Virus record (IMG/VR): IMGVR_UViG_3300035698_005287
Span: 1-26,118 of that record
Reading direction: 5' to 3' (one strand)
DNA length: 26,118 bases
Source: a virus
Both the position numbers and the translations under genes were made by a program. Below the pieces are notes generated by a model, which was not told the DNA's origin, made no database searches, and was given only the letters and a program-made list of their open reading frames with translations. Below are positions 5,619 to 25,806 of the stretch, piece after piece (the first letter of the stretch is position 1; each line of letters begins with the position of its first letter).

Positions 5619-6692
5619 ATGCCTATACAATTACCAAACTTTGCAGACATTATAGCTAGAGGGCCTCAGCCAAAATTAGATTTGATGCAATCAATGAGCG
5701 ATGCTTATGGCCCAGAAAAAGAGTTAGCAGGTATTAGGTTGAAGGAAGCTCAGGCTAAGCAAGCTGAGCGTGGAAGGCAGCCGCGACCATCTGGAATAAC
5801 AGCTAGCCTAGAATGGCTTGAAGAGCAAAAAAGAAGAACCAAAGGGTTGCCCGAAGATCACCCTGATGTTCTTTTTGCTGACCGAGCCGAAAAACAAATA
5901 ATGGCTGACCAAAGAGGCCAGAATGCTACCACTGAGCGTAGTGAGAAGTTAACTTCAACTCAAGAATACAGAAATGCCAACGATGTTGAAAAGATACTGA
6001 TGAATGTTAATCAGATTCAAGACACAGGGCAAATGTATAATAGGTCTGGTGAATTAATAGACTTAACGCCTGACCAGCAAACACAAGCTATAATGGCTCA
6101 GACACGCAATCTGGTTAATAAAAATGTACCGCAACCTCTACAAGACCAAATAACAGCTGGAACCAATTTTGGTACCACCTTAAGCTCAGTTGATCCTGAA
6201 GTTGTTTTCAGAGGGTCTGGTGGTTGGGGTGGATTAAAGAGAAAAATCAATGAACTAGCTGGCGTGGCTGGCTTTGAACAGAGCGAAGAATATAGACAAA
6301 TTCAAGAAGACATGCAGTCATTGTCAGTTGCAGCTGAGCAGTTTGCAAAATTTGCTAAAACACCTGCAGCTCAGAATGTTCATGCTGAAGTTCAAAAGAT
6401 AATAAATCCGACAAGTTGGTTTAAAAACCCAGAGTCTGCCCGCCGTCAATTTGAAAGAATTCGTAAGATTTTCAATGCTGAGCATGCTAATAACATTGTG
6501 GCTGCAACTGACTCTTCAATTTTTGGTTATGATTTCAATAAATCTCCTGCAGCATCTGAAGACGTTAACTCTTTCAATAACGCGCTAGACTCTCGTTCTG
6601 ATGACTCTTATGAAGCAAACTTGCAGCATACGGCTGACCTTTACGGGATAAGCGTTGAAGAGGTCGAAAGGCTTATGGGGGGTAGCGAATAA
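5619..6692 (+). CDS. Probable DNA-ejection protein (gp20 position)
   Basis: A 357-residue, mostly helical, charged protein. Residues ~30-130 are rich in K/E/Q/R and may form coiled coil. A more conserved-looking block around 195-280 contains VFRGSGGWGGLKRKINELAGV, EQSEEYRQIQEDMQSLS and NPTSWFKNPESARRQFERI, a pattern I associate with uncharacterised podovirus internal proteins. P22 gp20 is 471 residues. It starts 2 nt after the previous stop, and its TAATG end overlaps the next start. The DNA-ejection role is by synteny. Confidence 0.55.
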   Translation: MPIQLPNFADIIARGPQPKLDLMQSMSDAYGPEKELAGIRLKEAQAKQAERGRQPRPSGITASLEWLEEQKRRTKGLPEDHPDVLFADRAEKQIMADQRGQNATTERSEKLTSTQEYRNANDVEKILMNVNQIQDTGQMYNRSGELIDLTPDQQTQAIMAQTRNLVNKNVPQPLQDQITAGTNFGTTLSSVDPEVVFRGSGGWGGLKRKINELAGVAGFEQSEEYRQIQEDMQSLSVAAEQFAKFAKTPAAQNVHAEVQKIINPTSWFKNPESARRQFERIRKIFNAEHANNIVAATDSSIFGYDFNKSPAASEDVNSFNNALDSRSDDSYEANLQHTADLYGISVEEVERLMGGSE

Positions 6693-8917
6693 TGCCTAGA
6701 AATTTACTTGAAGGGATTATAGAGCTTCCTGGAAATAATGAGCAACCTGCCAGAAATAATGAAGGGCCTCAAGATTTGTTGTCGGGAATGGGCTTATCTC
6801 CTAAATCAGAGCAGCAAAGTATTTGGAATGACATAAAAGGTTTTCCTGGTAGGGTGGGTGAAAATATACAAGGGTTAGTTGAACCATTTGTTACCAGTCC
6901 AGAAGGTGCCGCAGACAACACTCAGATGAACAAGCTATCTAAAAATACTGGAATGGATCCAATATTTAACCTTCTTCGTTCTAAAGCTGCAGATGAAGTC
7001 AGTGGTGTTATTCAGCAACAACTTGCTGACCCTCAAAGAGCATGGCAAAACCAAAGCCAAGGAGCCATGAGTGGTATAAACACAGCAGCTCAAATCCCTG
7101 CAAACATTTCAAGGTATTTCGAGAGCAGAGGCGGACTGCCTGAAGGGTACACTGACGATTCATGGATGCAATCCTTAGCTGACAGCTCCAACAAAGCACT
7201 CGACAACACAACCAAACAGTTGCAAGGCGCTGGACTTTTAAGACCTGAAGGGGACCCAAGCCAGCCTGGCGATGCTTTAACACAGGGTGCGTTTGATTTT
7301 GCGCTGTTTCTTGGTGCTGGTTTGCCAGGAATTGGTATGCACGCTATTGGAAAAAATGAAGATCCACTTGCAGCAATGGCTGGCCCTAAGATAATACAAA
7401 ACGCCCCAGCTATTGGACGTGCCGGCAAACAAATTGCAAAACAAGGTGCTGACAAATTAGTGAAAACTCCAGCAAAATGGGCTGGCAAAAAAGCAGTAGA
7501 AACAAGCAAAAAGGTAGCTGATAAGTTCCGCGAGCCATTAACAAAAGCTGAAGAATCATATAATAAAGACATCAAATCTTTTAATGATTCCTTAGAAAAA
7601 ATGGAAGCAAAACATGCTGGAAGCCTAGAAAAACCTCAAAAACTTATCGAAATGCAGGAAAAAGAGATAGGGCAGTTAAAAGACTCGATGCTTGAGATAA
7701 ACAATGAACAAATTTCTGTTGGGAAGCAATATGATAACGCTCAGAAAAATGTAGAAACGATTGTGAAAGAAACATCCCCCAAGGATATATCAAGAGCAAG
7801 AGTAGAGACAGCTAAAACAATGAAATCAGCTCACAAGGACATTCGTGCTGAAGGTCATAAAATGTATGAAGACTATTCTAAAAGTGATGCAGGGCAGCGC
7901 TCTATAAAAGTGGAATCTAAAGTAGACCCTAGAAAAATTGGCAATATCACCAACGCTGACCACATAGGCCAAAAGTCTAAGGCGCTCATGGATAAAGTTC
8001 TAGGCAAAGCTAAGAAGACTCCATCAAACCAAAGAGTTTCATCTTCAGGCGCTCCAAGGCCTGAATGGGAAGTAACTGAAGGCTCACACAGAGTTGGAGA
8101 TTACGTCACACTATCCAAAGACTTAAGAGATATTAGTAGCGGCCTTTCAAGAGACATGAAAGCGCCAAATACAAAAATAGCAGAAAGAAACGCTCTTATA
8201 GGGCAGAAAGCGGAAGTGAATGCTCTAAGGGCTAAAGTAGATAAAGCCATATTAGATTCCACTTCAAAAGCTGAAGCAGCAGCGTATCAAAAGATTCAAG
8301 ACCACTGGAGAACCAAGGTAACCCCTTGGGATGAAAAGTCGGTGTTATCAAACGCTCTTGATAACAACCCGTCAATGAAAAGCAAGAACTTGATGGAAGC
8401 TTTAAGTAAGGAAGGGATTCCAGACCTGGTTGATGCATTAGTTAAGCGCGAAGACTTTAGCAGGGCTGTATCTGCTCAAGACATGGCAGGAATGAATGTA
8501 AAAACTCTAAGCGGAGTTAAGAAGTTATCAGAAAACTTATCTGGTGATTTAGGAAGAACTCTAGGGCCAGAAAAAACAGCACTTCTTGAAGCACAGGTAA
8601 GAAGAGTCTTACAAAGCGATGAAATGATAGCGAAGATGAAGGGCGAGCTGGTACAGAAAGGCGTGTCAAAAGCTGAAGCTCAAAGGCGTATGGACGGATT
8701 GAAAAAAGATCTTAAAAAGCAACAAGAAGTTAACGATTCAGAACTAAGGAAATTCAAGGATGAAAAAGTTAGCAAGGAATCAGCATCAAAAGACAAATTA
8801 GAAGCTGCAAAGCAACAGCATAGCGGTAAAGCAGCTGTAGCTAAAGCTGCAGCATTTGGATTAGGCGTAGGCAAAGGCTCATGGGCACTTTTAAAGTTCG
8901 TGACAGGGCAGGGATAA
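6692..8917 (+). CDS. Large probable DNA-ejection protein (gp16 position)
   Basis: A 741-residue protein, the largest of the three putative ejection proteins (P22 gp16 is 609 residues). Order of parts: a polar N-terminus; a hydrophobic Gly-rich segment near 200-222 (FDFALFLGAGLPGIGMHAIG); a long Lys/Glu-rich predicted coiled coil from ~270 to 360; a mixed helical region; a second Lys/Glu coiled coil at ~660-710; and a hydrophobic C-terminal tail (AAAFGLGVGKGSWALLKFV). No catalytic lysozyme or transglycosylase motif was seen. Two membrane-compatible segments in a helical internal protein fit a role in forming a channel for DNA entry, which is inference. It is coupled to the gene before by TAATG. 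Confidence 0.58.
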   Translation: MPRNLLEGIIELPGNNEQPARNNEGPQDLLSGMGLSPKSEQQSIWNDIKGFPGRVGENIQGLVEPFVTSPEGAADNTQMNKLSKNTGMDPIFNLLRSKAADEVSGVIQQQLADPQRAWQNQSQGAMSGINTAAQIPANISRYFESRGGLPEGYTDDSWMQSLADSSNKALDNTTKQLQGAGLLRPEGDPSQPGDALTQGAFDFALFLGAGLPGIGMHAIGKNEDPLAAMAGPKIIQNAPAIGRAGKQIAKQGADKLVKTPAKWAGKKAVETSKKVADKFREPLTKAEESYNKDIKSFNDSLEKMEAKHAGSLEKPQKLIEMQEKEIGQLKDSMLEINNEQISVGKQYDNAQKNVETIVKETSPKDISRARVETAKTMKSAHKDIRAEGHKMYEDYSKSDAGQRSIKVESKVDPRKIGNITNADHIGQKSKALMDKVLGKAKKTPSNQRVSSSGAPRPEWEVTEGSHRVGDYVTLSKDLRDISSGLSRDMKAPNTKIAERNALIGQKAEVNALRAKVDKAILDSTSKAEAAAYQKIQDHWRTKVTPWDEKSVLSNALDNNPSMKSKNLMEALSKEGIPDLVDALVKREDFSRAVSAQDMAGMNVKTLSGVKKLSENLSGDLGRTLGPEKTALLEAQVRRVLQSDEMIAKMKGELVQKGVSKAEAQRRMDGLKKDLKKQQEVNDSELRKFKDEKVSKESASKDKLEAAKQQHSGKAAVAKAAAFGLGVGKGSWALLKFVTGQG

Positions 8918-18535: not shown

Positions 18536-18779
18536 TCTTACTATTCCAATCCTTAACTGCATCAGCTCTAAGCTGGAACCTATCAGACTTGCTGTAGCAG
18601 CGTTCACACCTGACCCTATACTTGCCAAACATATTAACAATGCTAGGATAGCGCCCTCTGCCATAGCATGGGCACTTTTTCATGGTTTCTTGTGCATTGC
18701 TCTTAGGCTCTGCACACGTTTTAGGCTTTTCTTGTGGATAGCTTGTGCGTGCGCATAAGTCAGCTATTGCATCAGTCAT
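18528..18779 (-). CDS. Lar-like zinc-ribbon protein (possible restriction alleviation)
   Basis: An 83-residue protein. The C-terminal half fits the Lar family pattern: KKCPCYG (C36, C38), then YRVRCERC (C58, C61), then ADAVKDWN (D77-N79). Lar proteins of phage and prophage are known for relieving type I restriction. The first Cys pair here is C-x-C, not the usual C-x-x-C, so metal binding may be altered. The N-terminal ~30 residues (two more Cys) are extra. AAAGGA precedes the start, and both ends lie in ATGACTGA overlaps. Confidence 0.6.
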   Translation of the reverse strand: MTDAIADLCARTSYPQEKPKTCAEPKSNAQETMKKCPCYGRGRYPSIVNMFGKYRVRCERCYSKSDRFQLRADAVKDWNSKND

Positions 18780-19632
18780 TTAAAGCTTCCTTTATTTCTT
18801 CGCGCCACTCTCTTACTTTGCGGGGCATAAAGATGCCGTATAACACTATATCCCACTGGTTTGAAAAATAATTTGATAGATTAAATGTGGCCTTTTCTTT
18901 TTCAAGGTGTAAGAAAGCTTCTTTTGGGCATAAATTGTTATCTGCAGCCCAAGAGAGAGCATTTCTCGTGGTTAAAAGTTTTTCTTTATCTTCGCTAGTC
19001 AAACATCTAAGCACCGTGGGAGAACTTCTCTCTCTGTTCCCAGGCATTTGGTTTTTAGGCATCCTAAGTTTTCTCAAGGCTTTTGCCTCTATCTGCATAA
19101 TTCTGCTAATTGAGATTTCAAGCTCTTTGCCAAGATCTTTAAACGTTAATAATGGCCCATCAAAACCAAAACGTCCTTTAATAACTCTTTTCTCCCTAGG
19201 GCTTAGGCATTCTAACCCCTTAGATATAATCTTTTTTTCTTCTTCATCCTCAATCGCCAATATTGGATCACTACCGCCAATCATAAGAGGACACAAAGAC
19301 TCCATATCTTCTCGTGACAAAGCTCTTTCCGCCTTATTAGTAAGAAGAGGATTGCTCATCTGCTGCTCGTTAAACATCTCTTCAGGCTTAACACCCAAAG
19401 AAGCTGCTATCTTTTCAACAGCTGGCGCCCAAAGATTAGAACCACCTTCATTAGCCTTCCTAGAAAAAGGCGACGCAGTCATATTTAAAAAATCACCCAC
19501 CCGGGACTGACTTATACCGGCATCCCGAGCAAGCTGCGCAGCATTAATGATGCCACGCTCTTTCATTAAAGAAACTATCTTATTATTCTGAATCTTTACC
19601 TTTAAAAGGTAATCTTTGTTACTTGACAGCAT
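18772..19632 (-). CDS. XRE helix-turn-helix / sigma-70 region 4 fusion regulator
   Basis: A 286-residue DNA-binding protein. Residues ~13-88 form a Cro/CI-type HTH: IVSLMKERGI, AAQLARDAGISQSRVGDFLN, and EKIAASLGVKPEEMF. Residues ~127-190 match sigma-70 region 4: LSPREKRVIKGRFGFDG, then LTFKDLGKELEISISRIMQIEAKALRKLR, the -35-recognition HTH. No sigma region 2 is present, so it cannot act as a full sigma factor. The C-terminal ~95 residues are unassigned (WAADNNLCPKEAFLHLEKEK, EWREEIKEAL). The ATG at 19632 overlaps the previous stop (TGATG); a TTG at 19635 is an alternative. It may steer host RNA polymerase or compete with the host sigma at -35 sites near its own operator. Domain calls are confident; role is inferred. 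Confidence 0.8.
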   Translation of the reverse strand: MLSSNKDYLLKVKIQNNKIVSLMKERGIINAAQLARDAGISQSRVGDFLNMTASPFSRKANEGGSNLWAPAVEKIAASLGVKPEEMFNEQQMSNPLLTNKAERALSREDMESLCPLMIGGSDPILAIEDEEEKKIISKGLECLSPREKRVIKGRFGFDGPLLTFKDLGKELEISISRIMQIEAKALRKLRMPKNQMPGNRERSSPTVLRCLTSEDKEKLLTTRNALSWAADNNLCPKEAFLHLEKEKATFNLSNYFSNQWDIVLYGIFMPRKVREWREEIKEALND

Positions 19633-19874
19633 CAACCATCGGCTCCCACATCATCTTGCTCAGCTTCTTTAGCTTTGCGTAATATACCTGCACTATTCTT
19701 CCAAACGTATTCTAACTGACAGAGTAAATCTTTAAGCTCTGGCCTTGCAAGCTGAACTACAACATTTTCAGCTGACCCCATGCTTTCCACTTCAAGAAAT
19801 ACACCTTGAGGTGATGCACTTACATTGCACTCGCCATCTGTAAAACTGCAGTTAATTGTAAAAGGTGTATTCAT
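19632..19874 (-). CDS. 80-residue protein, unknown
   Basis: A beta-rich N-terminal half (INCSFTDGECNVSASPQGVF, LEVESMG, NVVVQLAR) and a helical, charged C-terminus (LLCQLEYVWKNSAGILRKAK). It overlaps the upstream gene by ATGA and the downstream regulator by TGATG, so it is co-translated with the regulator. No recognised family. Confidence 0.5.
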   Translation of the reverse strand: MNTPFTINCSFTDGECNVSASPQGVFLEVESMGSAENVVVQLARPELKDLLCQLEYVWKNSAGILRKAKEAEQDDVGADG

Positions 19875-22482: not shown

Positions 22483-22488
22483 GCGTTT
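22457..22488 (+). terminator. Terminator hairpin after YopX-like gene
   Basis: A perfect 10-bp stem, AAACGCCTAG (22457-22466) with CTAGGCGTTT (22479-22488), and a 12-nt loop. The gene's TAG stop is in the right arm. The sequence after it is TTTGTAATGATTT with TTT inside the arm, an imperfect but plausible terminator. Confidence 0.65.
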
Positions 22489-22497
22489 GTAATGATT

Positions 22498-22665
22498 TGC
22501 GTCCGGGTAAGACGCATAAACATATAGAGATCAGTTTTATTGTGGGCTAGATGTTAGCCAGCGTCAAGAAATAATTCTTGATCTAGGTGTAGGTAATCTA
22601 TAGTCTTGATGTTCAGCTTAGGGGAAACCCTAGAGAAAGAAAAAGCCCAGCTGCAAACTAGGCTT
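22498..22665 (+). ncRNA. Run of small hairpins in untranslated region (candidate RNA)
   Basis: The 288-nt gap 22483-22770 has no credible gene. It holds five further hairpins in a row: 22498-22503/22511-22516 (6 bp), 22545-22549/22555-22559 (5 bp), 22564-22570/22575-22581 (7 bp), 22618-22623/22628-22633 (6 bp with one wobble and a GAAA tetraloop), and 22643-22647/22661-22665 (5 bp). This density suggests a folded leader or small RNA, but no known class is recognised and chance hairpins cannot be excluded. Confidence 0.35.
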
Positions 22666-22725
22666 AACAACATAGTGTCTCTAGCACTACATAATGTATC
22701 GCCATTATCTGCTCCACACTATAAG

Positions 22726-24925: not shown

Positions 24926-25094
24926 AAGCAAATTTGAAGAATGCAGCAAAGATATATTGGAATATCTTGTAAGTTTATTTAGCTCAGATGTTACCAAAAT
25001 GAATGAAGAGATAAGCAAGCTTGAAGGCCAAATAATTAAAAGACATGAAGTTATAGGTGAGATTTTTGAGGTCTTAGACAGGAAGCACAGGTAG
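24912..25094 (+). CDS. 60-residue coiled-coil protein, unknown
   Basis: The double M start (24912 or 24915) is followed by KTESKFEECSKDILEYLVSL, then MNEEISKLEGQIIKRHEVIG, with a heptad-like hydrophobic pattern over residues ~8-55. The gene ends at the spacer of a strong promoter whose -35 lies inside its last codons. No family recognised. Confidence 0.5.
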   Translation: MMKTESKFEECSKDILEYLVSLFSSDVTKMNEEISKLEGQIIKRHEVIGEIFEVLDRKHR

Positions 25095-25103
25095 GGGTAT
25101 ACT
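25075..25103 (+). promoter_or_regulatory. Strong sigma-70-type promoter
   Basis: TAGACA (25075-25080, 5/6 match) is separated by exactly 17 nt from TATACT (25098-25103, 5/6 match). The -10 sits in a small palindrome (GGGTA/TACCC, 25095-25107). The predicted start is about 25109-25111, the first base of the tRNA-like stem. This is the best promoter seen in the window. Confidence 0.65.
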
Positions 25104-25109
25104 ACCCAA

Positions 25110-25190
25110 GCTCACAGCATTAATTCAATTGGTCAGAACCAGGGCTTTCATACCCCGGAATGCGAGTTCGAATCCCGCATGCTTGTGAGC
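25110..25190 (+). ncRNA. tRNA-like structure at the 5' end of an untranslated RNA
   Basis: The fold has tRNA hallmarks: T and A at positions 8-9 (25121-25122); a D-arm with TTC/GAA pairs and the loop AATTGGTCA; an anticodon-like stem (CC-A-GGG with CCC-C-GG, one mismatch) with an 8-nt loop CTTTCATA; and a T-arm GCGAG-TTCGAAT-CCCGC with one mismatch. The acceptor helix is unusual: 11 bp with one bulged T (25110-25120 with 25179-25190), not 7 bp, and no CCA follows. The anticodon cannot be assigned. It is more likely a tRNA mimic or decayed tRNA than a working tRNA. Confidence 0.6.
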
Positions 25191-25464
25191 AACTTGAATT
25201 TCGCCATCACGACCCTGAACCAAAGGAACTAAAAAATCCTTAACATAAAGGGCTTAGGTGTGCCTACCGAAGTGAGCAGGTAGGATGCATAGCCCAACGG
25301 TATAAAGAGAGATATGAGAACCACAGGAATCTAGCATGGGTAAATCGTGGTGACAGCTTGGAGAGACAGGCAACTTTATGTATAAGCTTCAGGCGGGCTG
25401 AAACTCCCCGGTTTACCGGTCAGCGAACCCTACTGGAGCTTGTGCTCCCATTCAAGGATGAAAA
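25191..25464 (+). ncRNA. Structured untranslated leader before rusA, unknown class
   Basis: No credible gene lies in these 274 nt. Visible stems: 25223-25227/25237-25241 (AAGGA/TCCTT); 25250-25254/25291-25295 (GGGCT/AGCCC) enclosing CCTACC/GGTAGG (25263-25268/25279-25284); TTCAG/CTGAA (25388-25392/25398-25402); CCGG/CCGG (25408-25411/25416-25419); and GGAGC/GCTCC (25435-25439/25444-25448). No match to tmRNA, RNase P RNA, group I core or known riboswitch motifs was recognised. It probably continues the RNA started at ~25110. Confidence 0.45.
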
Positions 25465-25806
25465 ATGGAAATCACATTACCCTATCCACCATCAGTAAAC
25501 CATTACTGGGGTGTATCAGGCAGAAGACGCTTTATAGGCAAGCGTGGCATCCAATTCAGAGCAGAAACACTACAGCTGATACCAAAGGCCCACAAAATGT
25601 TAGAGGGCCGTATACGGCTTCACATCAAAGCATACCCACCAGATAAAAGAGTCAGGGACTTAGATAACTTATTTAAGGCTGCTTTAGATTCACTTACTCA
25701 TGCTAATGTCTACACTGATGATTCATTGATAGATTATTTATCTATCGAGAGAATGGAAAAAGTTAAAGGTGGAAAACTAGAAATAACTATCACTGAGCTT
25801 GACTAA
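25465..25806 (+). CDS. rusA: RusA-type Holliday junction resolvase
   Basis: A 113-residue endonuclease that cuts four-way DNA junctions, useful for resolving recombination products before packaging. Family features: LPYPPSVNHYWG at the start, PPDKRVRDLDNLFKAALDSL (D65, D67, the metal ligands, and K71) and VYTDDSLID (D86). These match the Asp triad of E. coli RusA (120 residues). AAGGATG precedes the ATG. It lies 355 nt downstream of the tRNA-like promoter start. Confidence 0.9.
   Translation: MEITLPYPPSVNHYWGVSGRRRFIGKRGIQFRAETLQLIPKAHKMLEGRIRLHIKAYPPDKRVRDLDNLFKAALDSLTHANVYTDDSLIDYLSIERMEKVKGGKLEITITELD

What the first reader, a model, noticed from the sequence alone, without database searches (positions are those of the whole stretch)
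25075..25464. Promoter that starts exactly on a tRNA-like fold, followed by a ~355-nt untranslated structured RNA
A 5/6 + 5/6 promoter with ideal 17-nt spacing predicts transcription from about 25110, the first base of an 11-bp bulged stem that closes a tRNA-like cloverleaf (T-loop GTTCGAATC, D-loop AATTGGTCA, T8/A9). The acceptor helix is too long, the anticodon loop is 8 nt, and there is no CCA, so it is not a normal tRNA. A further ~270 nt with several stems precedes rusA. In a genome where genes overlap by 1-14 nt, 370 nt without a gene suggests a functional RNA: a tRNA mimic acting on RNase P, synthetases or ribosomes, or a long leader controlling rusA.
Basis: partly seen in the sequence, partly recalled or inferred. 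Interest (0 to 1): 0.82.

Follow-up and report, generated by a model that had tools for sequence, protein, structure and literature searches.

The report
Worn tRNA-like element upstream of rusA
Between two phage genes lies a stretch that clearly descends from a tRNA but no longer has the shape needed to decode a normal codon; it may be a leftover, or one of a recurring set of non-decoding tRNA-like RNAs that related phages carry.

Summary
The anatomy is real. Window 25110-25190 is a tRNA-like sequence inside the longest gene-free gap of the window (25095-25464). It scores 25.9 bits for Rfam tRNA, below the cut-off of 29 (E=0.004). A model built from it alone retrieves only tRNAs and tRNA-like genes from 1.34 Mb of phage DNA. 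The 11-bp bulged stem, 8-nt anticodon loop and missing CCA are confirmed.

The promoter is no better than chance. D-, anticodon- and T-stems each carry one A-C mismatch, and RNA folding does not recover the D- and T-arms. The downstream 270 nt folds only moderately better than expected; its closing helix depends on the flank folded. No homologue was found, so covariation could not be tested.

Best reading: a diverged, non-decoding phage tRNA derivative, remnant or structural. Context adds interest: in phages related by capsid or Sak4 genes, 15 of 22 tRNA-like hits lack a normal anticodon arm (14 of 21 without a duplicate), yet all 16 tabulated elements keep fully paired acceptor and T stems. 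Some appear nested. The window element resembles these but is the most worn.

The parts
25075..25103 (+). Sigma-70-like promoter candidate TAGACA-17-TATACT
   Evidence: no more sites than in shuffles, so not shown to be real
25110..25190 (+). tRNA-like element (outer 11-bp bulged stem enclosing D, anticodon and T regions)
   Evidence: Rfam tRNA 25.9 bits at 25114-25186; R1 model matches only tRNA-like genes
25110..25120 (+). 5' strand of the 11-bp stem, GCTCACAGCAT
25123..25139 (+). D-arm equivalent ATTC-AATTGGTCA-GAAC, 3 of 4 pairs (A-C mismatch)
   Evidence: not predicted by free folding
25140..25157 (+). Anticodon-arm equivalent CAGGG-CTTTCATA-CCCCG, 8-nt loop, 4 of 5 pairs (A-C mismatch)
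25162..25178 (+). T-arm equivalent GCGAG-TTCGAAT-CCCGC, 4 of 5 pairs (A-C mismatch)
25179..25190 (+). 3' strand of the 11-bp stem, ATGC-T-TGTGAGC, T25183 bulged; no CCA follows
25193..25456 (+). Downstream region, possibly closed by CTTGAAT/ATTCAAG; moderately structured, no known family
25454..25458 (+). Shine-Dalgarno candidate AAGGA of rusA, partly covered by the possible closing helix
   Evidence: sequence; accessibility depends on context
25465..25806 (+). rusA-like Holliday junction resolvase gene
   Evidence: PHROG 34, E 4.6e-41

Best explanation
The element is a phage tRNA gene that has stopped being a decoding tRNA. It keeps the tRNA signature (U8/A9, GG in the D-loop, a consensus T-loop). 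It has lost one pair in each of the D-, anticodon- and T-stems, each time as an A-C mismatch such as a G-to-A change produces. Its anticodon loop is 8 nt, and its acceptor is now part of an 11-bp bulged helix without CCA. If transcribed, it most likely sits in the leader of the rusA transcript as a stable closed tRNA-like hairpin that enzymes reading the acceptor/T half (for example RNase P) might still recognise; it does not decode in the normal way. Shown: the tRNA relationship, the non-canonical geometry, the robust outer helix (in silico). Inferred: transcription, processing, and the choice between passive remnant and retained structural RNA; I rate remnant slightly more likely.
For: Rfam tRNA alignment over the whole length, E 0.0041 among 4227 families. 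All matches of model R1 other than itself are tRNA or tRNA-like genes: L233 tRNA-Lys-like, L115 tRNA-Glu, L089/L119 tRNA-Asn (one genome), L254 tRNA-like (coordinates agree). ARAGORN rejects it. Stem counts: acceptor 5/7 without the bulge, D 3/4, anticodon 4/5, T 4/5, against 112/112 acceptor and 80/80 T pairs in 16 comparable elements of other phages. Outer helix robust. tRNA-like genes without a normal anticodon arm are frequent in related phages.
Against: The acceptor extension (4 extra pairs beyond 7; by my rough estimate about 1% by chance) is not expected of simple decay. The gap has not been lost although neighbouring genes overlap. No canonical parent tRNA is in the window and no homologue shows the direction of change.
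Confidence: 0.55

Rival explanations
1. A retained, functional non-decoding tRNA-like RNA: the acceptor/T half is kept for recognition by host tRNA enzymes, as a decoy, a processing mark or a stable 5' element of the rusA transcript.
For: Lengthened and robust outer stem; gap kept in a compact region; in related phages the acceptor and T stems of anticodon-altered elements are all intact and their altered middles fold better than shuffles (Fisher p 3.5e-6).
Against: The window element itself has a mismatch in D-, anticodon- and T-stems and fails the descriptor that found the others; no transcript data; no homologues.
Confidence: 0.25
2. The gap is a structured leader that controls rusA, for instance by covering its Shine-Dalgarno sequence; the tRNA-like part is incidental or part of the fold.
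For: z about -3 for 25190-25460; possible helix 25193-25199/25450-25456 overlaps AAGGA.
Against: The helix probability falls from about 0.9 to 0-0.4 with other flanks; folding is not unique among windows of the genome; no Rfam match.
Confidence: 0.12
3. A working tRNA with an expanded anticodon loop, for example one that reads four bases or resists an anticodon nuclease.
For: 8-nt loop; phage tRNAs with anticodon-loop changes are described as escaping anticodon nucleases (PMC10264068).
Against: 11-bp bulged acceptor, no CCA, mismatched D- and T-stems, below the tRNA cut-off.
Confidence: 0.04
4. An attachment-site remnant of a host tRNA gene.
For: tRNA fragments in mobile elements often arise by integration (PMC9897764).
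Against: Both halves of the tRNA are present; the 22-nt 3' half has no exact match in genomes of 84,980 species; I recognised no integrase among the window proteins searched (not all were searched).
Confidence: 0.03

Closest known systems
Phage-encoded tRNA genes (Rfam RF00005)
   Same: U8/A9, D-loop GG, consensus T-loop, order of arms
   Different: Score below the family cut-off, 8-nt anticodon loop, 11-bp bulged acceptor, no CCA, A-C mismatches in D-, anticodon- and T-stems
tRNA gene fragments left by mobile elements (PMC9897764)
   Same: tRNA-derived, non-canonical sequence in a mobile genome
   Different: Nearly full length rather than a 3' part, and no matching host tRNA found
GOLLD and ROOL RNAs of phages (PMC12286853)
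   Same: Phage-borne structured RNA near or containing tRNAs
   Different: No Rfam match; about 350 nt, whereas many GOLLD RNAs exceed 800 nt
Bacterial Y RNAs (YrlA) with a tRNA-like domain
   Same: A bulged stem closing a tRNA-like fold (my own knowledge)
   Different: No Rfam match up to E 10; a Ro60 partner was not looked for systematically
tmRNA
   Same: tRNA-like domain linked to a longer structured RNA
   Different: Cloverleaf here is contiguous at the 5' side, no tag frame called, no Rfam match

Membership tests
tRNA (RF00005) | Score at or above the gathering cut-off of 29 bits | tested here: not met
   25.9 bits
tRNA (RF00005) | 7-bp acceptor, 7-nt anticodon loop, paired D and T stems | tested here: not met
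   11-bp bulged stem, 8-nt loop, D 3/4 and T 4/5 pairs
tRNA (RF00005) | Homology to tRNA | tested here: met
tRNA (RF00005) | Aminoacylation and decoding | not testable with these tools
   needs RNA from infected cells
tmRNA | tmRNA call with tag peptide, or Rfam match | tested here: not met
YrlA / Y RNA | Match to a Y RNA family model | tested here: not met
   none up to E 10
YrlA / Y RNA | Binding by Ro60 | not testable with these tools
   no assay
GOLLD / ROOL | Match to the Rfam model | tested here: not met
Group I intron | Match to RF00028 | tested here: not met
   none in the window, while the same model finds one in a relative
Structured cis-regulatory leader | Covarying helices in homologues | not testable with these tools
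   no homologue found
attP in a tRNA gene | Identity to a host tRNA 3' half | tested here: not met
   no exact match of the 22-nt sequence in genome contigs

The most novel reading that the evidence does not exclude
Phages of this kind carry a recurring, overlooked set of non-decoding tRNA-like RNAs: a preserved acceptor, D- and T-arm scaffold whose anticodon arm is replaced by another hairpin, shrunk, or expanded to hold a further tRNA-like unit. The window element is a diverged member. Such natural tRNA scaffolds could carry decoys, antisense loops or processing marks that work through host tRNA enzymes.
Probability: 0.25. Interest if true: 0.78.

Novelty: new variant of a known kind. Interest (0 to 1): 0.42.

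Why it matters
On its own, a worn tRNA-like element is of modest interest. If the pattern seen in related phages is real, ordinary tRNA finders miss or mislabel a set of phage RNAs in which the half read by RNase P, the CCA enzyme and EF-Tu is kept and the decoding half is replaced. That bears on the old question of why phages keep tRNA genes, and small-RNA sequencing could test it.

Tried and rejected
DNA similarity to phages and plasmids: none for the whole gap; the tRNA-like part alone gives only weak matches, the best to phage tRNA-Cys genes; the 268-nt part gives three weak short matches.

Relatives by protein in IMG/VR: helicase by single protein gave none and by alignment only distant ones, at most 35% identity; RusA, capsid and Sak4 relatives exist, but none was seen to share the gap.

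Exact patterns in IMG/VR: a 50-mer gave none; two 18-mers gave one hit each, both overlapping protein genes and judged chance.

A blastn match in L255 is a single 19-nt stretch, E 0.33; its context showed nothing further. Weak matches in RusA loci at a similar distance look, by eye, like one conserved coding stretch.

Host: no capsid relative in GTDB, so host and promoter type stay unknown.

Full report
The gap. Window 25095-25464 lies between a 60-aa gene of unknown function and a rusA-like gene. No ORF of 50 aa or more occupies either strand from 25095 to 25439, and this is the longest such gap in the 26-kb virus record. Its capsid relatives are IMG/VR contigs of up to 39 kb, so the genome is probably incomplete here.

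The tRNA-like element. ARAGORN and Rfam at its cut-offs report nothing. As an independent check I built a covariance model from this sequence alone and searched 1.34 Mb of phage DNA; apart from itself it matched only tRNA or tRNA-like genes. I take descent from a tRNA as shown.

Why it is not an ordinary tRNA. The outer stem is 11 bp with a bulged T and is predicted almost with certainty. The anticodon loop is 8 nt; its sequence CUUUCAUA resembles a tRNA-Glu loop with one extra base (my inference). There is no CCA. The D-, anticodon- and T-stems each contain one A-C mismatch, and free folding pairs other parts instead of forming the D- and T-arms. Three A-C mismatches where G-C pairs would stand fit simple wear. 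The 4-bp extension of the acceptor does not; by my rough estimate it has about a 1% chance of arising at random.

The promoter. TAGACA-17-TATACT is present, but such sites are no more frequent than in shuffled sequence (3 against 4.7). The host, and so its promoter type, is unknown.

The downstream 270 nt. Folding energy is better than shuffles by about 3 standard deviations, and the whole gap by 2.7. Against other windows of the same genome, under a wider null, it is near the bottom of 102, with one lower. A helix CTTGAAT/ATTCAAG could close the region and cover part of the rusA Shine-Dalgarno sequence. Its probability is about 0.9 in one context and 0-0.4 in others, so control of rusA is only a possibility.

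No homologues. The gap has no match in phages or plasmids, in capsid relatives, in RusA or Sak4 relatives, or by exact patterns in IMG/VR beyond chance. The 3' half of the tRNA-like element has no exact match in genomes of 84,980 prokaryote species, which argues against an attachment site copied from a host tRNA.

A wider pattern. While looking for relatives I found that tRNA-like genes in related phages are often odd. A descriptor requiring acceptor, D-arm and T-arm but leaving the middle free gave 6 hits in capsid relatives and 16 in Sak4 relatives, with 0-0.5 expected from Markov-resampled sequence. By a rule for a normal anticodon arm (at least 4 of 5 stem pairs, 7-nt loop, U33), 7 were canonical and 15 were not. 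Two of the 15 are the same virus on two contigs. Among RusA and helicase relatives 7 were canonical and 3 were not. Caveats: the sets are small, the Sak4 and helicase sets are mixed phages, and the rule is strict enough that ARAGORN still names four of the 15 as tRNAs (L233 Lys, L234 Trp, L279 Phe, L294 Gly).

I tabulated 16 non-canonical elements: 13 from the capsid and Sak4 sets and 3 from helicase relatives, leaving out the duplicate and a 370-nt outer frame in L253. All 112 acceptor pairs and all 80 T-stem pairs are intact, although the filter allowed one loss in each. The altered middles fold better than shuffles overall (Fisher p 3.5e-6), but 6 or so drive this and several are unremarkable. 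Examples: L111 18434-18538 has a paired hairpin of about 17 bp in place of the anticodon arm and ends in ACCA. L254 13146-13208 has only CGTTAATTAACG there. L267 carries two in a 937-nt region that folds at z -6.6 against 20 shuffles. L253 holds a tRNA-Gln inside a larger tRNA-like frame (not tested further). Larger frames around the elements in L233 and L254 were read by eye and not tested.

How the window element fits. It shares the altered anticodon arm and has a lengthened stem, but unlike the 16 it has lost pairs in its stems, and the descriptor does not find it. It is either a decayed element of that kind or an independent remnant. The elements are nearly unique in sequence, so I cannot place it in a lineage.

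Verdict. A diverged non-decoding tRNA derivative is the best-supported reading (0.55). A retained structural RNA is the main rival (0.25), and a rusA leader is possible (0.12). Related published ideas are phage tRNAs with anticodon-loop changes that escape anticodon nucleases (PMC10264068), tRNA fragments from mobile elements (PMC9897764), and GOLLD/ROOL RNAs near phage tRNAs (PMC12286853). My literature searches found no description of the remodelled pattern, but most subscription journals are not held, so its novelty is not established.

Noticed in passing
L267:214-1150 (+): A 937-nt gene-poor, strongly structured region (z -6.6 against 20 shuffles) upstream of Sak4, with two tRNA-like elements (582-654, 675-806) that have altered anticodon arms, plus a further T-arm-like piece near 957-985.
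   Followed up: partly
L111:18434-18538 (-): tRNA-like gene ending in ACCA whose anticodon arm is a long hairpin with a 14-nt loop, upstream of the capsid gene.
   Followed up: partly
L253:8220-8589 (-): A tRNA-Gln gene (8430-8499) lies inside a larger tRNA-like frame of acceptor, D-arm and T-arm, a nested arrangement.
   Followed up: partly
L233:5859-6149 (+): By eye, an outer acceptor GAGAATAT/ATATTCTC with a T-arm encloses a tRNA-Lys-like gene (5919-6001) that has a 10-bp acceptor and no U33.
   Followed up: partly
L254:13146-13208 (+), also seen as L309: Minimal tRNA-like element with good acceptor, D- and T-arms but only CGTTAATTAACG for an anticodon arm; by eye it sits inside an outer stem ACCTGTG/CACAGGT.
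   Followed up: partly
L121:4814-4909 (+): In the closest capsid relative, a class II tRNA-like gene with an 8-nt anticodon loop GGTAATAG and an 8-bp acceptor, about 1 kb upstream of the capsid gene; the same sequence is on contig L082.
   Followed up: partly
L115:2666-2728 (-): tRNA-Tyr-like gene that seems to have lost its anticodon arm; part of its 3' half matches the tRNA-Tyr of L232 at 94.7% over 38 nt.
   Followed up: partly
L114:6147-6393 (-): Group I intron (75.6 bits) next to the capsid gene of a relative.
   Followed up: no
window 18772-19635 (-): Protein with matches to sigma-factor and transcriptional-regulator families; a possible phage regulator.
   Followed up: no
window 22483-22693: Second-longest gene-free gap in the window (211 nt), not examined.
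   Followed up: no
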